From a virus, in the IMG/VR virus record IMGVR_UViG_3300035187_001612, positions 1 to 46,727 of that record: a stretch of DNA of 46,727 bases. One strand, given 5' to 3'. The notes below the pieces were generated by a model. The model saw only the letters and a list, made by a program, of their open reading frames with translations. It was not told the origin of the DNA and searched no databases. The translations under genes were made by a program, and so were the position numbers. Shown here one piece after another: positions 17,288 to 43,037 of this stretch (its first letter is position 1; each line of letters starts with the position of its first letter).

Positions 17288-18169
17288 ATGCCCGCGTTGA
17301 GCAAGGCATCGCTGAAGACGATCTGGGTCAACTACTTCCAGCCCACGTCAAGCAACTTCAGCGACCTGATCGACTCCTGGACTGACTTTTCCGTTGGTCT
17401 CCAGGCACTCGGCCAAGCCGTCTCGGCGGGGTCTACCGGGGTGGTGAACTTTGCCAGCACCTCTACGGTTTCGTTCCTGGCTGTCGGAGCCGAGGGTCAG
17501 GCTTTGCTCGGCACGGCCACGGAAGCGTCGGCCAGGACGGAACTGGGGTTGGGGACGTTGGCAACGCAGTCCACGGTCACGGCTGCAAACTTGGCGGCAG
17601 CGTCTGTGTCGGCGGCGGCGATCGTGGACAACTCGATCACGCTGGCGAAGGTGGCGCGGGTGGGGACCACGGGACAGTCGCTCATCAGCGGTGGCACGGC
17701 GGCGGATGCGGCCTATGGGTGGACGGGTGTTGTCCAGAGGGTATCAACCAGAAGCGGGTCTGTGGCGACGAATACGACTGCCCTGCCGTATGACGACACG
17801 CCACCTCTGAACACAGAGGGCGCTGAATTGATGACGGCGACGATCACGCCGCGCAGCGCAAACAATCTCTTGCTGGTGGATGTGAACGTGTTTTGCGCCA
17901 CATCTGTCGGCGACATGACGATTGCCCTGTTCCAGGATGCCACCGTTACCGCGGTTGCTGCCGGCGGCACTGCCGCGGCCAACCGGGCGAATGCCATGAT
18001 GCAGGTGTCTTTCCGATATGAGGCGACCGCAGCCACCACAAGTCCGTTGACATTCAGGGTGCGAGGAGGTGTCGCATCTGGAACATTTACGTTCAATGGG
18101 CAGAGCGGTGGCAGGTTGTATGGGGGCGCCATCGTTTCTTCCATTTCCGTCACGGAGGTCGCGCCATGA
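17288..18169 (+). CDS. Tail fibre paralogue 1, 293 aa
   Basis: N-terminus PALSKASLKTIWVNYFQPTS then SNFSDLIDSWTDF is nearly the same as that of the next gene (TALSKATLKATWV, then SDFANLIDSWTDY). After residue about 50 the two diverge. Here a Thr/Ala-rich shaft is followed by a beta-rich C-terminal domain with YRYEATAATTSPLTFRVRG-like strands and a final YGGAIVSSISVTEV. Likely a receptor-binding or accessory fibre attached through the shared N-terminal module. Stop overlaps the start of paralogue 2. Confidence 0.65.
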   Translation: MPALSKASLKTIWVNYFQPTSSNFSDLIDSWTDFSVGLQALGQAVSAGSTGVVNFASTSTVSFLAVGAEGQALLGTATEASARTELGLGTLATQSTVTAANLAAASVSAAAIVDNSITLAKVARVGTTGQSLISGGTAADAAYGWTGVVQRVSTRSGSVATNTTALPYDDTPPLNTEGAELMTATITPRSANNLLLVDVNVFCATSVGDMTIALFQDATVTAVAAGGTAAANRANAMMQVSFRYEATAATTSPLTFRVRGGVASGTFTFNGQSGGRLYGGAIVSSISVTEVAP

Positions 18170-19058: not shown

Positions 19059-19304
19059 ATGCCAGACGAGATCAACCGCGACCTTGGGCGGCTTGAGGGC
19101 CGTCTTGACGAGTTCATCCAGGCGCGCGTGAACCGCGACAAGCGCACCGATGAACGGTTTGACCGGCTGGAGGAAAAGGTCCAGCAGCTTCTCGATGCAG
19201 CCAACATGGGCAAAGGCGCTTGGTGGTTGGCGCTCAAGATCGGCGGCTTGATGACGGTAATCGGCACCGCAGCCGCTTGGGTCGTGCAGAAGATAGGCTT
19301 CTGA
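19059..19304 (+). CDS. Coiled-coil plus single membrane helix protein, 81 aa
   Basis: Residues 5-50 form a charged coiled coil (INRDLGRLEGRLDEFIQARVN, then TDERFDRLEEKVQQLL). Residues about 55-77 form one membrane helix (WLALKIGGLMTVIGTAAAWVV). This layout is common for small phage lysis-cassette proteins, sometimes called haemolysin XhlA-like or DUF1515-like. A holin is encoded 1.4 kb downstream, so a lysis-accessory role is plausible. Stop overlaps the next start. Confidence 0.6.
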   Translation: MPDEINRDLGRLEGRLDEFIQARVNRDKRTDERFDRLEEKVQQLLDAANMGKGAWWLALKIGGLMTVIGTAAAWVVQKIGF

Positions 19305-20464
19305 TGCCAACCCCATCCATCAGCCGTGATGAAGGTCTTAGGCGCATCCAGTTGATAGAGGAGGCATTGAGAGATGGGTTTTCCCCTCCCGGCGTAGTCA
19401 ACAAAAAGGGGAAACACGGAGCCATCTACGAGGCTTCGATTCGTATGGGCCTCAATGGGTCGTGCGGCTACCGGGAGATACACCGCATCGAAACGGCGGC
19501 GGGGCGCAAGATCGACTGGTCTCTATGGCCCGGCCACAAGACAGCGCAGCCGGCACGGTTCGACCCGCCCACCATCCCATCGGATGACATCCCGGTCGAG
19601 AAGCTCATTGAGCAGTTGTCCGAGCGGTTTGGGCGCAGGGCTGAACATGCAGCCGCCAAGAAATGGATGCGGTTCACGCTGAAGGAACCAGGCCCGTATG
19701 TCCTGGCTTTCGTCGGCGACCCTCATTTGGACGACAACGGATGCAACTGGCCTTTGCTGCGCCGCGACGTGGATCTCATGCGGACGCCTCACGTCCACGG
19801 TATCATGCTGGGGGACGCTACCAATAACTGGTCGGGCAAGCTCCAGAGGTTGTACGCCAACCAGGACGTGACCCGCGATCGGGCTTGGCGGCTCGCTGAG
19901 TGGTTCTTCCAAGCCGTCCCGTGGTTGTTGCTTGTCAAGGGCAACCATGACCTGTGGAGCCAGTCCCAGGGCCAAGGCGACCCGTTGGACTGGATGGCTC
20001 GCGGAGGGGCCGCTCTGGAGGACTGGCAAGCCAAGGTCGAGATCGCTTCAGGGGACCATTCGGTGAAGCTCTGGGCGGCTCACGACTTCAAGGGCAGTTC
20101 AATGTACAACCCGCTCCACGGGCCGATGAGGGCGCAGAGGTTCTCGGCGGGCGAGGCCGACATCCTGGCGGCGGGGCATCAGCACCATTGGGAAATCTTC
20201 AGCGGCGAGGACGCCGACAAGGGGCACAAGCCCCATTGGCTGCTGCGGGCGCGCGGGTACAAGTACCTTGATGAGTATGCCGATCGACACCAGTACGCTG
20301 CTCAGCAGCATGGCGCGACGATAGCGGCGGTGGTGGACCCGTCCCGCCAGGGTCCAGCGGCGATCCAGTGCTATGCCGATCTGTCCGAGGCGGTTGAGAT
20401 CCTGGCGTTCAAGCGGAAGCGATGGGAGACGGCGAATGGAGCGGCGCCGAAGCGCAGACGATGA
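19304..20464 (+). CDS. Calcineurin-like metallophosphoesterase with N-terminal HTH-like region, 386 aa
   Basis: Metal-binding motifs appear in the family order: GDPHLD (about 138-143), GDATNNW (170-176), GNHDLW (213-218), AHDF and GHQHHW (about 290). This is the D-H...GD...GNHD...GHxH pattern of calcineurin-like phosphoesterases, which bind two metals and cleave phosphomono- or diesters. Residues 5-65 look like a helix-turn-helix with a specificity loop (EALRDGFSPPGVVN, YEASIRMGL). Such HTH-phosphoesterase proteins occur in many phages near lysis genes. The substrate is unknown; nucleic acid is a reasonable guess given the HTH. Confidence 0.8.
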   Translation: MPTPSISRDEGLRRIQLIEEALRDGFSPPGVVNKKGKHGAIYEASIRMGLNGSCGYREIHRIETAAGRKIDWSLWPGHKTAQPARFDPPTIPSDDIPVEKLIEQLSERFGRRAEHAAAKKWMRFTLKEPGPYVLAFVGDPHLDDNGCNWPLLRRDVDLMRTPHVHGIMLGDATNNWSGKLQRLYANQDVTRDRAWRLAEWFFQAVPWLLLVKGNHDLWSQSQGQGDPLDWMARGGAALEDWQAKVEIASGDHSVKLWAAHDFKGSSMYNPLHGPMRAQRFSAGEADILAAGHQHHWEIFSGEDADKGHKPHWLLRARGYKYLDEYADRHQYAAQQHGATIAAVVDPSRQGPAAIQCYADLSEAVEILAFKRKRWETANGAAPKRRR

Positions 20465-20732: not shown

Positions 20733-21134
20733 ATGCTCGCAGCAATCCTGCCCGTCCTTGGCCCGATCCTGGGGCAAGTTGCCAAGTCGGTTTTCCCAAA
20801 TGCGGAAGACGAACTGAAGCGCATGGAGATCCAGGCCCGCATGAACGAGGCGCTGATCGCAAACCAGGCTCAGATTGAGGCGGCGGCAGCAAAGGTCATC
20901 GAGGCGGAAGCAGCGGGCGAGTCCTGGCTGCAAAGGAACTGGCGCCCGCTGACCATGATGGTATTCGTCGGCTTGATCGTCGCCAAGTGGTCTGGCTGGA
21001 CGGCGCCAGGGGTGTCGGAGGCGCTGGAGTTGCGCCTCCTGGGGTTGATCGAAATCGGACTTGGCGGCTACGTGATTGGCCGAAGCGTGGAGAAGGTCGC
21101 CCCGGTCATTGCTTCGGCTTTGAAGAAGCCATAG
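20733..21134 (+). CDS. Holin, 3-TM family (gene-transfer-release type), 133 aa
   Basis: N-terminal hydrophobic helix (LAAILPVLGPILGQVAKSVF), a charged Glu/Ala-rich linker (residues 23-65), ESWLQRNWRPLTMMVFVGLIV, then a third hydrophobic segment LLGLIEIGLGGYVIGRS with a C-terminal VEKVAPVIASALK. WxxRxWRPLxMxxF is diagnostic of the 3-TM holin family (PF11351) that releases gene-transfer agents and phages by opening the inner membrane to endolysin. Its last 29 bases overlap the 3' end of the tasA-like gene on the other strand. Confidence 0.85.
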   Translation: MLAAILPVLGPILGQVAKSVFPNAEDELKRMEIQARMNEALIANQAQIEAAAAKVIEAEAAGESWLQRNWRPLTMMVFVGLIVAKWSGWTAPGVSEALELRLLGLIEIGLGGYVIGRSVEKVAPVIASALKKP

Positions 21135-22029
21135 GCCAGTTCGGCGGCGCCAGATAGTGGGCGTGGCCGAGATGCTCCAGGGCATACGGTCTCGGGGGTT
21201 CCACACCATTGACCGTCGTGAACCAGACGTGATGCAGATGGGACAGGAACAGCTTGACCGCCGCCCGCTTGGCCCTGGCGTGGATGTGTGCCGGGGGCAG
21301 CATCGGAACCCCGCTGCCAGGCTTCCCAGCCGCCTTCTTGGCTGCTCCTGCCTTCAGGTCGGCAAGTAGCTCTGCCGCCTTGCCTCGCGTGAGAGAGCCG
21401 CTGTACCAGGCATAAGCGTCAGTGTCCTTTCCGATGTTCTTGGTGGCGAGAACGGCAGCGGCTTGATCGGCGAGCTTGCCGGCAAGGTTCCGCTCCATCT
21501 CGAAGTCTTTCCGTTCCTTGTAGACCTGACCGTAGAAGGCGTTCTCGTTGTTGTGGGTCTTGACAAAGGACTCGCCGATCTTCCAGCAGAGCGTCTTGAG
21601 GCTGGCGTTCCACGGGCGCCGCTGGCCCTTCATCCATTTGACGGACGGATTGAGGCCGGCGAAGTTCCAGATGTGGCCTGCGGTCGGGGCTTTCGTGATG
21701 TCGATGTGTGCGAGCAGACCCGCGGCGGTGACGGGGCCGATGCCGACGATCGACCTCGCCCACGATCCGACCGGGTGCGCGTCGCTGTAGGCGTCCAGGG
21801 CGACCTTGATCGACTGCTCCAGGGTGTCTGCGTTGTTTTCGAACCAGGTCAGGACTTCGTGGGGTTCGTTGCTCTTGCTGAGCGCACGGACCTGTGAAGC
21901 GGATCTGATCCGGTTCTCCTGCATGTTGTAATAGGAATCGACCAGGAAGCGCGCCTCATCGTCGCTCAGTGTGTAAGAGGCTTTCTTCAGGTCGCGGGTG
22001 AGTTTGGTGATGATCGACTCAAGTTCCAT
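21106..22029 (-). CDS. tasA: TasA-like Nop/IS110-type RNA-guided protein, 307 aa
   Basis: ATG at 22029 is preceded by GGAGG at seven-base spacing; an in-frame ATG 33 bases upstream has no such site and lies in the array. Residues 1-85 are helical. SIVGIGPVTAAGLLAHIDI (93-111) is a helix-hairpin-helix of the IS110/IS116/IS902 transposase C-terminal type, followed by IWNFAGLNPSVKWMKGQRRP (120-139). The C-terminal third ends in HIHARAKRAAVKLFLSHLHH. No RuvC-like DEDD domain, HNH motif or serine-recombinase-like tail is visible. Databases tend to call such phage proteins transposases. Published work on TIGR-Tas links this Nop-like fold to box C/D snoRNPs and IS110 and names nuclease-less forms TasA. 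The tandem bipartite array 20 bases upstream is the main support. Expected role: binds array-derived guide RNA and DNA without cutting it. Confidence 0.78.
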   Translation of the reverse strand: MELESIITKLTRDLKKASYTLSDDEARFLVDSYYNMQENRIRSASQVRALSKSNEPHEVLTWFENNADTLEQSIKVALDAYSDAHPVGSWARSIVGIGPVTAAGLLAHIDITKAPTAGHIWNFAGLNPSVKWMKGQRRPWNASLKTLCWKIGESFVKTHNNENAFYGQVYKERKDFEMERNLAGKLADQAAAVLATKNIGKDTDAYAWYSGSLTRGKAAELLADLKAGAAKKAAGKPGSGVPMLPPAHIHARAKRAAVKLFLSHLHHVWFTTVNGVEPPRPYALEHLGHAHYLAPPNWPMASSKPKQ

Positions 22030-22032
22030 AAT
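22004..22032 (+). promoter_or_regulatory. Candidate promoter reading into the repeat array
   Basis: TTGGTG (22004-22009), a 17-base spacer, then CATAAT (22027-22032), a five-of-six match to TATAAT. Transcription would start near 22039-22041 and enter the array, whose first degenerate unit begins at 22049. It reads opposite to tasA, with its -10 on the tasA start codon. The -35 match is only moderate, so this is a hypothesis, but position and spacing are apt. Confidence 0.38.
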
Positions 22033-22048
22033 ATCCTCCAATGGGTTG

Positions 22049-22801
22049 ATTGCGCTCGTCACACTTGATGTTCAGGCCTTGTGGCTCGCTCATCGAGACT
22101 GATGTTCTCGCCATATGGCTCGCTCCTCGATGTTGATGTTCGCGGGGCCTGGCTCGCTCGCGGGACATGATGTTCTGTCCCATCGGCTCGCTCGCGAGGA
22201 ATGATGTTCGTCATGCTTGGCTCGCTCGACTTCAATGACGTTCGATGCTGCTGACTCGTTCGCGGACGATGCTGTTCCGGACCCGAGGCTCGCTCCAGGG
22301 TTTTGATGTTCGCGGATGATGGCTCGCTCCCGAACTTTGATGTTCTGATAGTGTGGCTCGCTCCCGCATTATGATGTTCGCTCAGGGTGACTCGCTCTCG
22401 CGCGTTGTGTTCCGAATCTTTGGCTCGTTCTCGTCTTTTATGTTCGGTAGGTCTGACTCGTTCCTCGACACTGATGTTCCCCATCGCTTGGCTCGCTCTG
22501 GTTTCATGTCGTTCCGTCCAGGTGGCTCGCTCTGCCCGCTTTGTTCCCGACTATTGGCTCGCTCAAACGCCGTGATGTTCCTTGTATCTGGCTCGCTAAT
22601 GCGTTTTGCTGTTCAGGTCCTGGCTCGCTTCAGCTACTTGCAGTTCCGATCGTTTGGCTCGCTTGCGCTGGGGTGATGTTCCGCGGCGATGGCTCGCTCA
22701 TTTTCTCTGATGTCCTGCTTTTTTAGCTCGCTCTTCAACGCTGACGTTCAACGGGAGTGGCTCGCTCTTCGGCAGTGAAGTTCACTTTCCCAGGCTAGTA
22801 C
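22049..22801 (+). repeat. TIGR-like array: about 22 units of 34 bp, two conserved boxes and two variable 8-mers per unit
   Basis: On the + strand each unit is T-GGCTCGCTC (box A), eight variable bases, TGATGTTC (box B), eight variable bases. Box A starts at 22083, 22117, 22151, 22185, 22219, 22253, 22287, 22321, 22355, 22389, 22422, 22455, 22490, 22524, 22556, 22590, 22622, 22656, 22691, 22725 and 22759. Spacing is 34 in most cases (32-35 range). Degenerate box A copies in exact register lie at 22049 (ending CGCTC) and 22793 (GGCTAGTAC). The period is not a multiple of three, so no frame gives a repeated protein. All variable segments seen differ. Some boxes vary (GACTCGTTC, TGACGTTC, TGCTGTTC). 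UGAUG resembles box C of C/D RNAs, favouring + strand sense. Strand is inferred, not proven. Confidence 0.85.
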
Positions 22802-23169
22802 GACCAGATCGTGGCCGCAGAGCGGTTGTCCAAGTGGACGAACCTCCCACCATGCGGCCCCTTCTGGCTGATCCCGATGCCACCAAAACCGGCCATGATA
22901 GCCAGGCCGACAAGCCGGTGAGCATCGCGGCCAGAGACCAGGACATCAACGGCACGTCCTTTCGGATGATACCCCGTGGTCTTTTTCCCGGCCTCTTCGG
23001 GGTGGGAAGGATCGCGGTAGGCAGAAGACAGGATCATCGGGCTTCCATACGCCAGACGCAGCCTATCGAGCGCCTCCATGAACTCTTTGTCCATGAGGCA
23101 CAAGCCGGTGTGCCTGCATGCCAGTTCATGGCGCGTGAAGTACGTCGAACGATCTACAGTATCCGCCAT
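22795..23169 (-). CDS. Endolysin: M15A-type D,D-/L,D-peptidase, 124 aa
   Basis: The zinc site of peptidase M15A is visible: SSAYR (48-52), H68 with D75 in HPKGRAVDV, and HLD (112-114). The 124-residue length fits single-domain phage endopeptidase endolysins with no signal peptide, so export depends on the 3-TM holin encoded at 20733. AAGGAGGG lies seven bases before the ATG. The substrate is the peptide stem of peptidoglycan. Its stop codon overlaps the last degenerate unit of the array, and holin and endolysin are on opposite strands on either side of the tasA/array block, an unusual split of a lysis pair. Confidence 0.85.
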   Translation of the reverse strand: MADTVDRSTYFTRHELACRHTGLCLMDKEFMEALDRLRLAYGSPMILSSAYRDPSHPEEAGKKTTGYHPKGRAVDVLVSGRDAHRLVGLAIMAGFGGIGISQKGPHGGRFVHLDNRSAATIWSY

Positions 23170-40469: not shown

Positions 40470-41074
40470 GACAGGTTCTGAGGGACGGGTTGGTTTTTCC
40501 CGCCGACGACGATCACTTCCACGGCAAGGTCACGGAATACCAGAAGGCCGTGTTCGACATGGCGATGGGATACGTTGACGACATTGACCATCAATGCACG
40601 GCGATCGACGCCGGCGCCCATGTGGGCATCTTTACGCGACGGATGCGGGTGTTTTCTGAGGTCTTGGCCTTTGAGCCTGACTTTGAAAACTACGCTTGTC
40701 TGGTCGAGAACACGGCCATGTTGCCGAATGTCAAGCCGATCCACGCTGCCCTGGGCCGCACCAATGGCTGGGGATCGGTTCAGGTGGACCACAAGCCAAA
40801 CTCTGGCGCCAGGAGCTTTGTCCCTTTTGAAAAGGGCGAGATCCGGGTGTTCCCTATCGACCTGTTCCTGACTTCGCCGGTGAAGCTCATCAAGATCGAC
40901 ACCCAGGGCGCCGAGCAGGACATTCTGATGGGCGCCAACATGCTGTTGCGGCGCGACAAGCCGGTCCTGATTGTTGAGATGCCAGATACAGACACGACCA
41001 TCTATCTGTGCAACCTTGGCTATCTGCCGGTTGGTCGGGTCAACAAAGACCAGGTTTTTGCCAGGAGGGATTGA
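40466..41074 (+). CDS. FkbM-family methyltransferase, 202 aa
   Basis: AIDAGAHVGIFTRRM (47-60) is motif I, VLAFEPDFENYACLVENTAM is motif II, and LIKIDTQGAEQDILMGA is the FkbM signature (K-D-(E/T)G-E---L-GA). FkbM enzymes O-methylate sugars or other hydroxyls. Start overlaps the glycosyltransferase stop (ATGA). Second clear methyltransferase of the cassette. Confidence 0.85.
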   Translation: MRQVLRDGLVFPADDDHFHGKVTEYQKAVFDMAMGYVDDIDHQCTAIDAGAHVGIFTRRMRVFSEVLAFEPDFENYACLVENTAMLPNVKPIHAALGRTNGWGSVQVDHKPNSGARSFVPFEKGEIRVFPIDLFLTSPVKLIKIDTQGAEQDILMGANMLLRRDKPVLIVEMPDTDTTIYLCNLGYLPVGRVNKDQVFARRD

Positions 41075-41075
41075 G

Positions 41076-43037
41076 ATGCGCGCGCTGGTTGTTACGAGTT
41101 GGTCGGACGTTGGTTACGAACTCTATGGGCGCCGGTGGGTCGAGACGTTCGACAAGTACTGGCCTGGAAGCTGCACCAAGCTGGTTGTGACCGACTGGCA
41201 CCTGAGCATTGACCAGCAGTTCACGGCGTTTAAGGAGCGCCATGCCGACAAGGTTCTGGATGCCAGCCATCCAGGCTACGACTACCGCAAGGACTTGCTG
41301 CGTTTTGCCCACAAGGTCTTTGCCCTCAAGGCGGCGCTCAAGGACGCCGAAGGATACGACTATCTGATCTGGCTTGACGGGGATGTCGAAACCAAGGCCG
41401 AGATCACGGACGACCTGCTGGCGAAGATCTGCCCGGACGACAAGGACGGCGCATTGCTGTCCAGAGCCGATAGCGCGCCGCACCCTGAATGCGGGTTCAT
41501 GTCGTTCAACCTGCGTCGCAAAGGACGGGATTTTCTGAATCGTTTTATCAATTTGTATGAAAGCGACAACATCCTGAAGCTGAATGAATGGCACGACAGC
41601 CATGCGTTCATGATTATGCTGGTCGCCCACACCAAGTTCGCTGATTCGGTCTGGGAAGACTTGGCGCCAGCCGGCGTCGGGCCGCATGGGCTGGATGCGT
41701 TTGAGGCTTCAATCCTCAATGACTTCTTCTACCACAAGAAGGGCAACCGCAAGTTCCAGGCCGAAGCATTGACCAATGCCGAGATCCTGGCCCGTCTCTT
41801 GCAAGGCAGGACGGCCAAGATCGTGCGCCCGACTGGCCCGTTTGACGGCATTGTCGAGGATGTCGTCGTCCTGGATTGCGACATGCAGCCCGTCGAACTG
41901 CTGCGCGAGGTTGTCCCGAAGTTGACGGGCAAGACAGTCATCTATCGTGGCTGGTACTCTCAGGACGCGACCGGCGCGCATGTGGACACCACGCGCTTTG
42001 GTATCAACAATGTTCGAACGGACTTGGTGGCTTTTGAGAGCATCGAGCCGGCCAAGGGCGGCGGGTTCATCCACCTTGCCGTTGATCGGGACACGCCATT
42101 CCCCGCCGATCTCCCTGTCTTCCGGCACCGCGAACTTGAGGTGATCAGCAAGGAGCAGGCGCGCGAAATCACCAACGGCGCCTACCAGACCAACATGCTG
42201 GTCAAGACGCAGAACTGCGTTGATGAAGAGACCATCCGGGCCAACATCGTCGCCAACCTTGACCAAGTGAAGGAGTGGGTCCAGGGGACGTTGCCGCACC
42301 GGAGGCGGGCTATCATCGTGTCGGCTGGTCCCAGTCTGGATCTGCCCGAGACCTTGGACGCCATCCGCAAAGAGGTGGCCGACGGCGCTTTCTTGTTCTG
42401 CGTGAAGCATTCGCACCGCAAGCTCATCAACGCCGGGATCATCCCCAGGGCATGCGTCCTGCTCGACCCGCGCCCGCATGAAGGCATCTCGACGCACGGC
42501 GAGCCACGGGCTGACCTTCTTCCCGCGGCGCATCCAGGGGTGATCTATTTCTGCGCGTCGATGGTTGACCCTGGCACGGTCAAGCGGCTTCTCGACACCG
42601 GGGGCCGTGTGGTGGGCTGGCATGCGGCGGTTGGGGCAAACGAGGTTTCGGTTTTGCCTGACAACCACAAGAAATTTCTCATGGGTGGCGGATCATCGTC
42701 TGCCGGCCGTGCTATGATCCTGGCCTGGCAGTTCCTTGGGTTCACAAGCATCGGGTTGTATGCCTTTGATTCCTGTCACTTGGATGAGTCCAAGATTGAC
42801 AAGAATGCAAGGCATCAGGACGGCACGGAAAAGTACTTCCTGATGGAAGTCGGCGCGGGCAAAGCCAAGAAGCAATTCTGGACCGATCGCGACATTCTCT
42901 GTCAGGCTCAGGACTTCAGCCGGTTCCTCAACGAATGCCCCTGGATCCATTGGGACGCGCACGGGCCTGGCATGGTCGCGTATCTCTGGAAAAACACCAA
43001 GGGCAACCTGCCTAGCTTCGAGGAACAGTTTGGATGA
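41076..43037 (+). CDS. Bifunctional glycosyltransferase plus DUF115/Maf-like protein, 653 aa
   Basis: N-terminal part (1-200) has YDYLIWLDGDVETKAEITDDLL, a GT-A DxD-type site. The C-terminal part (about 395-650) has RRAIIVSAGPSLDLPETLDAIR, FLFCVKHSHRKLINAGIIP and GGGSSSAGRAMILAWQFLGF, matching DUF115/Maf-type domains (6-hydroxymethylpterin pyrophosphokinase-like fold) known from flagellin and surface glycosylation. Such fusions occur in phages next to portal genes. It may glycosylate virion or host surface. ATG overlaps nothing upstream; its stop overlaps the portal start. Confidence 0.7.
   Translation: MRALVVTSWSDVGYELYGRRWVETFDKYWPGSCTKLVVTDWHLSIDQQFTAFKERHADKVLDASHPGYDYRKDLLRFAHKVFALKAALKDAEGYDYLIWLDGDVETKAEITDDLLAKICPDDKDGALLSRADSAPHPECGFMSFNLRRKGRDFLNRFINLYESDNILKLNEWHDSHAFMIMLVAHTKFADSVWEDLAPAGVGPHGLDAFEASILNDFFYHKKGNRKFQAEALTNAEILARLLQGRTAKIVRPTGPFDGIVEDVVVLDCDMQPVELLREVVPKLTGKTVIYRGWYSQDATGAHVDTTRFGINNVRTDLVAFESIEPAKGGGFIHLAVDRDTPFPADLPVFRHRELEVISKEQAREITNGAYQTNMLVKTQNCVDEETIRANIVANLDQVKEWVQGTLPHRRRAIIVSAGPSLDLPETLDAIRKEVADGAFLFCVKHSHRKLINAGIIPRACVLLDPRPHEGISTHGEPRADLLPAAHPGVIYFCASMVDPGTVKRLLDTGGRVVGWHAAVGANEVSVLPDNHKKFLMGGGSSSAGRAMILAWQFLGFTSIGLYAFDSCHLDESKIDKNARHQDGTEKYFLMEVGAGKAKKQFWTDRDILCQAQDFSRFLNECPWIHWDAHGPGMVAYLWKNTKGNLPSFEEQFG

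What the first reader, a model, noticed from the sequence alone, without database searches (positions are those of the whole stretch)
21106..22801. TIGR-Tas-like RNA-guided system in a phage: TasA-like protein plus tandem interspaced guide array
Seen: about 22 units of 34 bp with two conserved boxes (GGCTCGCTC, TGATGTTC) and two variable 8-mers each, joined to a gene for a 307-aa protein with an IS110/Nop-type helix-hairpin-helix core. Known: TIGR-Tas systems pair a dual-spacer array, processed to about 36-nt tigRNAs, with a Nop-domain protein related to IS110 and box C/D snoRNPs; nuclease-less versions are TasA. Inference: this is such a system, likely DNA-binding without cutting, used for gene control or against rival elements. 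The pairing of a two-spacer array with this protein is hard to explain otherwise.
Basis: partly seen in the sequence, partly recalled or inferred. Interest (0 to 1): 0.96.

Follow-up and report, generated by a model that had tools for sequence, protein, structure and literature searches.

The report
Phage-borne TIGR-TasA RNA-guided DNA-binding system
A bacterial virus carries a small RNA-guided DNA-binding system of the recently described TIGR-Tas kind, with a Nop-domain protein and 22 two-part guides; it is a clear new member of a known family with slightly shorter guide units, and what it binds in nature is still unknown.

Summary
The observation and its reading both hold. The array has 22 units, most of 34 bp, with two alternating repeats and two 8-nt spacers each; 17 repeat pairs match within 3 mismatches against 0.04 expected. 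The functional strand is the minus strand: edge GAGCGAGCCA, loop GAACATCA. The array lies directly upstream of, and co-directional with, the 307-aa gene. The protein passes NCBIfam's TIGR-Tas model (1e-63), matches solved TasR and TasH by sequence and fold, and lacks their N-terminal nuclease: TasA. An edge-repeat array lies beside the gene in 83 of 96 homologous loci, always on the gene strand. Consecutive edge repeats covary as expected for a tigRNA whose two ends pair. The 34-nt unit sets the window and its two nearest relatives apart from the usual 36. No guide targets its own phage or other Tas loci above chance. Most likely: RNA-guided, non-cutting DNA binding against host or rival-element DNA. 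In related arrays single spacers are re-paired with new partners far more often than whole units are copied.

The parts
21106..22029 (-). tasA gene: 307-aa Nop/IS110-type RNA-binding protein without a nuclease domain
   Evidence: NCBIfam NF052498 TIGR_Tas_endo 1e-63, 215 bits vs cut-off 100; phmmer to TasR 9mty 1.3e-18 and TasH 21kl 2.2e-13; AF2 model mean pLDDT 84.6 whose top 11 PDB matches are all TasH or TasR
22048..22801 (-). TIGR dual-repeat array, 22 units, minus-strand reading: edge GAGCGAGCCA - spacer A (8) - loop GAACATCA - spacer B (8)
   Evidence: segmentation; shuffle test
22792..22801 (-). truncated first edge repeat (GTACTAGCCT), overlapping the stop codon of the endolysin gene
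22052..22057 (-). truncated last edge repeat (GAGCGC), about 20 nt before the tasA start codon
   Evidence: sequence
22033..22039 (-). likely ribosome-binding site GGAGGAT just upstream of the tasA ATG
   Evidence: sequence; inference
22795..23169 (-). endolysin-like M15 peptidase gene directly upstream of the array, probably co-transcribed with it
   Evidence: phrog_894 5e-27; Pfam Peptidase_M15_3 6e-12
20733..21134 (+). holin gene, convergent with tasA and overlapping its 3' end by 29 bp
   Evidence: phrog_3427 5e-28; Pfam GTA_holin_3TM 1.4e-8

Best explanation
This is a TIGR-TasA system. One minus-strand transcript, probably running on from the endolysin gene, carries 22 guide units and the tasA message. 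TasA dimers bind the repeats; a host RNase cuts in the middle of each edge repeat to release tigRNAs of about 34 nt. In each tigRNA, 8-nt spacer A and 8-nt spacer B pair with opposite strands of a 16-bp DNA site of the form 5'-A-rc(B)-3'. Because TasA has no nuclease, it binds, opens and bends the site without cutting, and so blocks transcription or replication. The targets are not in the phage's own genome; they are most likely host genes or rival mobile elements. Shown here: family membership, array anatomy, strand, covariation at family level, absence of nuclease, absence of near-perfect self targets. Carried over from TasR, TasH and TasA experiments (PMC12045711): processing and the pairing rule. 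Inferred: effect on the target and its identity.
For: NCBIfam TIGR-Tas model 1e-63. Sequence match to TasR and TasH and fold match, with all 11 hits at E<=0.001 being TasH or TasR chains. The characterised SpTIGR array of Salicola phage CGphi29 has AAGCGAGCCA/AAGACAACCA repeats and 8+8 spacers, close to those here. Arrays sit beside the gene in 83 of 96 homologous loci, all on the gene strand and none on the other. Covariation between position 8 of edge i and position 3 of edge i+1 has odds ratio 23, p 2.6e-23; within one edge it is 4.8 and in the reverse-order control 5.1. That is the pairing expected between the two half-edges of one tigRNA. No A-rc(B) match at 0-1 mismatch in the window.
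Against: No small-RNA or binding data. No sigma-70-like promoter was found near the array, so transcription from upstream is assumed. No terminator directly follows the array, unlike the typical loci in the paper. No natural target was found for any guide. In the window alone the edge variants are too few to show covariation.
Confidence: 0.86

Rival explanations
1. A TIGR-TasA system used for the phage's own gene control: guides bind sites in the phage genome, with mismatches, to time lysis or early genes. Its place between endolysin and holin would fit.
For: Location between lysis genes.
Against: No own-genome match at 0-1 mismatch in the predicted order; at 2 mismatches 2 found against 3.7 expected from re-paired spacers. 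The same lack holds for nine arrays tested, apart from two 1-mismatch sites in relative L002 (0.35 expected).
Confidence: 0.08
2. A worn-down IS110 transposase next to an unrelated repeat array.
For: Weak IS110 matches.
Against: IS110 model scores 26.8 against cut-off 140 while the Tas model scores 215 against 100. Homologues are intact and linked to arrays in 83 of 96 loci. There is no DEDD domain.
Confidence: 0.01
3. A CRISPR-like or protein-coding repeat, or a replication iteron array.
For: Periodic repeats in a phage; short open frames cross the array.
Against: Two alternating short repeats with two spacers differ from CRISPR. A 34-bp unit shifts frame each time, with further indels. The array is tied to a Tas gene and its strand.
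Confidence: 0.01

Closest known systems
SpTIGR / TasH of Salicola phage CGphi29 (HQ634153, TIGR-Tas, PMC12045711)
   Same: Nearly the same edge repeat (AAGCGAGCCA vs GAGCGAGCCA), 8+8-nt spacers, phage-borne, homologous Nop domain.
   Different: TasH has an N-terminal HNH nuclease, a 10-nt loop repeat, a 36-nt unit and its array downstream of the gene.
FpTIGR TasA of Flavonifractor plautii (PMC12045711)
   Same: Solo Nop-domain effector with a dual-repeat array; by the paper it binds 36-nt tigRNAs.
   Different: 9-nt spacers by the paper. Sequence was not compared here.
TaTasR (PDB 9mty)
   Same: Best PDB sequence match, 1.3e-18, and fold match.
   Different: Has an N-terminal RuvC nuclease; the alignment of our protein starts at TasR residue 125.
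IS110/IS621 bridge-RNA recombinase
   Same: Shared Nop-like RNA-binding core; weaker fold match (E 0.007 or worse).
   Different: Has a DEDD recombinase domain and bridge RNA; our protein has neither the domain nor the score.
Viral-contig loci L002 and L003 (IMG/VR)
   Same: 66-67% identical protein, identical repeats, 34-nt units, array upstream of the gene.
   Different: No spacer pair in common; the L002 genome is otherwise largely unrelated.

Membership tests
TIGR-Tas | Effector with Tas-type Nop domain | tested here: met
   NCBIfam NF052498 1e-63, above curated cut-off; PDB sequence and fold matches to TasR/TasH
TIGR-Tas | Array of two alternating 8-12-nt repeats separated by short spacers next to the gene | tested here: met
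   10-nt edge, 8-nt loop, mostly 8-nt spacers, 22 units. The paper gives 9-nt spacers with exceptions; 16 nt in all for SpTIGR
TIGR-Tas | Truncated edge repeat at each end of the array | tested here: met
   GTACTAGCCT at 22792-22801 and GAGCGC at 22052-22057 on the minus strand
TIGR-Tas | Edge and loop repeats share box D and box C motifs at their ends | tested here: met
   Both begin GA and end CA (GAGCGAGCCA, GAACATCA); relatives keep GA...CCA in both. The paper's UG...CCA for TasR is said to vary in step between the repeats
TIGR-Tas | Covarying base pair between consecutive edge repeats | tested here: met
   Family level: odds ratio 23, p 2.6e-23 against control 5.1; window alone has too few variants
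TIGR-Tas | Rho-independent terminator after the array (typical, not defining) | tested here: not met
   Array runs into tasA; no terminator-like site follows it. A typical feature of described loci, not a defining one
TIGR-Tas | Array processed to about 36-nt tigRNAs bound by the protein | not testable with these tools
   needs small-RNA sequencing; 34 nt predicted
TIGR-Tas | tigRNA-guided DNA binding by tandem spacers | not testable with these tools
   needs binding assay; no natural target found
TasA subtype | No HNH or RuvC nuclease domain | tested here: met
   307 aa; matches start at residue 125 of TasR and 137 of TasH; no nuclease in Pfam
IS110 transposases | DEDD (RuvC-like) catalytic domain and full-length IS110 match | tested here: not met
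   IS110 model 26.8 bits vs cut-off 140, covering residues 65-195 only

The most novel reading that the evidence does not exclude
TIGR arrays diversify by re-pairing single spacers, through recombination at loop as well as edge repeats, so new two-part guides arise by combination rather than by acquiring matched spacer pairs. The window belongs to a separate branch with compact 34-nt guides. The re-pairing evidence comes from related arrays; the window array itself shows no reused spacer.
Probability: 0.5. Interest if true: 0.7.

Novelty: new member of a known kind. Interest (0 to 1): 0.45.

Why it matters
TIGR-Tas was described in 2025. What the nuclease-less TasA systems bind, and how their arrays grow, were left open in that paper. 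This locus adds a phage TasA with 22 readable guides, a compact 34-nt unit shared with its nearest relatives, and a position between lysis genes. The relatives collected here give a direct handle on array evolution: tas genes 97-98% identical in DNA can share as few as 1 to 9 of their units, and single spacers are re-paired within arrays.

Tried and rejected
Self-targeting: both orders (A-rc(B) and rc(B)-A), gaps 0-2, up to 2 mismatches in the window and eight relatives, against re-paired spacers as null; no excess. Relative L002 had two 1-mismatch sites against 0.35 expected, judged too weak. Cross-targeting among Tas loci (1,108 guides, 2.35 million 18-mers): 3 exact against 2.2 expected and 115 one-mismatch against 110 expected (sites listed). 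Three window guides as exact patterns in IMG/VR: 10, 23 and 79 contigs, none with an exact second guide match. One guide of the Halomonas prophage relative in 4 and then 201 genomes: no hit. Host of the phage: not determined, since its terminase is at best 34% identical to named phages. Rfam: no match. The genome scan with the single protein found nothing, with the alignment ten loci. Rejected: worn IS110, CRISPR, coding repeats.

Full report
What is there. The window is a 46.7-kb virus record with terminase, portal, holin, endolysin and recombination genes. At 22048-22801 lies an array of 22 units, mostly 34 bp. Read on the minus strand a unit is edge GAGCGAGCCA, spacer A (8 nt), loop GAACATCA, spacer B (8 nt), with a truncated edge at each end. 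Seventeen loop-N8-edge pairs match within 3 mismatches; shuffles give 0.04 on average. The edge motif alone at 2 mismatches is not above chance over the whole window, so order and spacing carry the evidence. Repeats nearest the gene are the most uniform.

The protein. The gene at 21106-22029 (minus) encodes 307 aa with a good ribosome-binding site. It passes the curated NCBIfam model for TIGR-Tas at 1e-63, 215 bits against a cut-off of 100, and fails the IS110 model, 27 bits against 140. By sequence its best PDB matches are TasR (1.3e-18) and TasH (2e-13), aligned from their residues 125 and 137 on, so the nuclease domain is missing. An AlphaFold2 model built on 13 sequences (mean pLDDT 84.6) has TasH and TasR chains as all eleven PDB matches at E up to 0.001; IS621 and ISCro4 follow, weaker. 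The TM-scores are moderate (0.45-0.57 on the query), probably because domain arrangement differs as well.

Strand and linkage. Relatives were collected from viral and genome collections. An edge-repeat chain lies within 3 kb of the gene in 83 of 96 loci (36-67% protein identity), always on the gene strand although both strands were searched. Counting the window, arrays lie downstream in 60 loci, upstream in 14 and on both sides in 9. The characterised TasH array of Salicola phage CGphi29 carries AAGCGAGCCA and AAGACAACCA with 8-nt spacers. Hence the minus strand is taken as the functional one. Note that the 96 loci include near-copies.

Evidence that units act as tigRNAs. In the TasR structure (PMC12045711) the half-edges at the two ends of one tigRNA pair. 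If so, position 8 of an edge should covary with position 3 of the next edge. Over the family the odds ratio is 23 (p 2.6e-23), against 4.8 within one edge and 5.1 in the reverse control. Relatedness of arrays inflates all three values; the excess over the controls is the signal. The test does not tell the strands apart, and the window alone has too few variants.

A compact branch. Of 84 loci 78 have a modal unit of 36, four have 34 and two have 35. The window, L002 and L003 form one supported clade (98/93) and all have 34. The fourth 34-nt locus, L128, has a different 8-nt loop (GATACCCA) and was not in the tree. The shortening lies in the loop repeat, GA-ACAT-CA.

Context. The first edge overlaps the stop codon of the endolysin gene, and the last lies about 20 nt before the tasA start codon, so array and gene probably share one transcript read from upstream; no promoter-like site was found nearby. 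The holin gene runs towards tasA and overlaps its end. L002 shares the tas module, a 414-aa protein (75%) and a few other genes (36-57%) with the window, but little else, so the module seems to move between unlike phages.

Targets. From the 3' overhangs and opposite-strand pairing in the paper, a target should read A-rc(B) on one strand with 0-2 bp between. Searches of the own genome, other Tas loci, IMG/VR (three guides) and Halomonas-family genomes (one guide of a relative) gave nothing above chance. This speaks against near-perfect self-targeting and leaves host or rival elements; the host is unknown. A 16-bp site is too short for blind searches of large collections.

Array evolution in relatives. 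Loci with tas genes 97-98% identical share only 1 to 9 whole units of 11-45. Inside 72 distinct arrays the same spacer recurs with a different partner 32 times (0.8 expected from column shuffles), while whole units recur 3 times. This suggests exchange at loop repeats as well as edge repeats. It is not seen in the window array. A few arrays with ambiguous phase (for example L058) may add noise; L018, L080, L082 and L089 look clean.

Verdict. A clear member of TIGR-Tas, subtype TasA, with a compact unit. A mechanism carried over from characterised members is likely; target and effect are inferred.

Noticed in passing
L018, L080, L082, L089 (and 14 other arrays): Single spacers recur in the same array with a different partner 32 times (0.8 expected), whole units only 3 times: arrays appear shuffled at half-unit level.
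   Followed up: partly
L078, L080, L081, L082: tas genes 97-98% identical in DNA but only 1-9 guide units shared: very fast array turnover.
   Followed up: partly
window 19220-20464 (+): 414-aa protein 75% identical to one near the tas locus of L002, in otherwise largely unrelated phages; only a weak metallophosphatase match below cut-off.
   Followed up: partly
window 17288-18169 (+): Protein with a C-terminal domain like chlamydial plasmid protein Pgp3 (Pfam PF05475, 1.3e-7), among the structural genes; probably a trimeric fibre-like domain (fibre role is inference).
   Followed up: no
window 40971-43037 (+): 688-aa protein matching MptE-like 6-hydroxymethylpterin diphosphokinase (Pfam PF01973, 1.6e-13), unusual beside the portal gene.
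   Followed up: no
L052 (Halomonas sp. NO4) and L055 (Acidobacteriaceae bacterium KBS 96): Tas genes with arrays in named bacterial genomes; IMG/VR records with identical arrays (L083, L110) suggest prophages. Possible culturable hosts for tests.
   Followed up: partly
L010, L015, L054, L056, L099, L117: Tas homologues without a detectable edge-repeat array within 3 kb; may use stem-loop arrays or diverged repeats.
   Followed up: no
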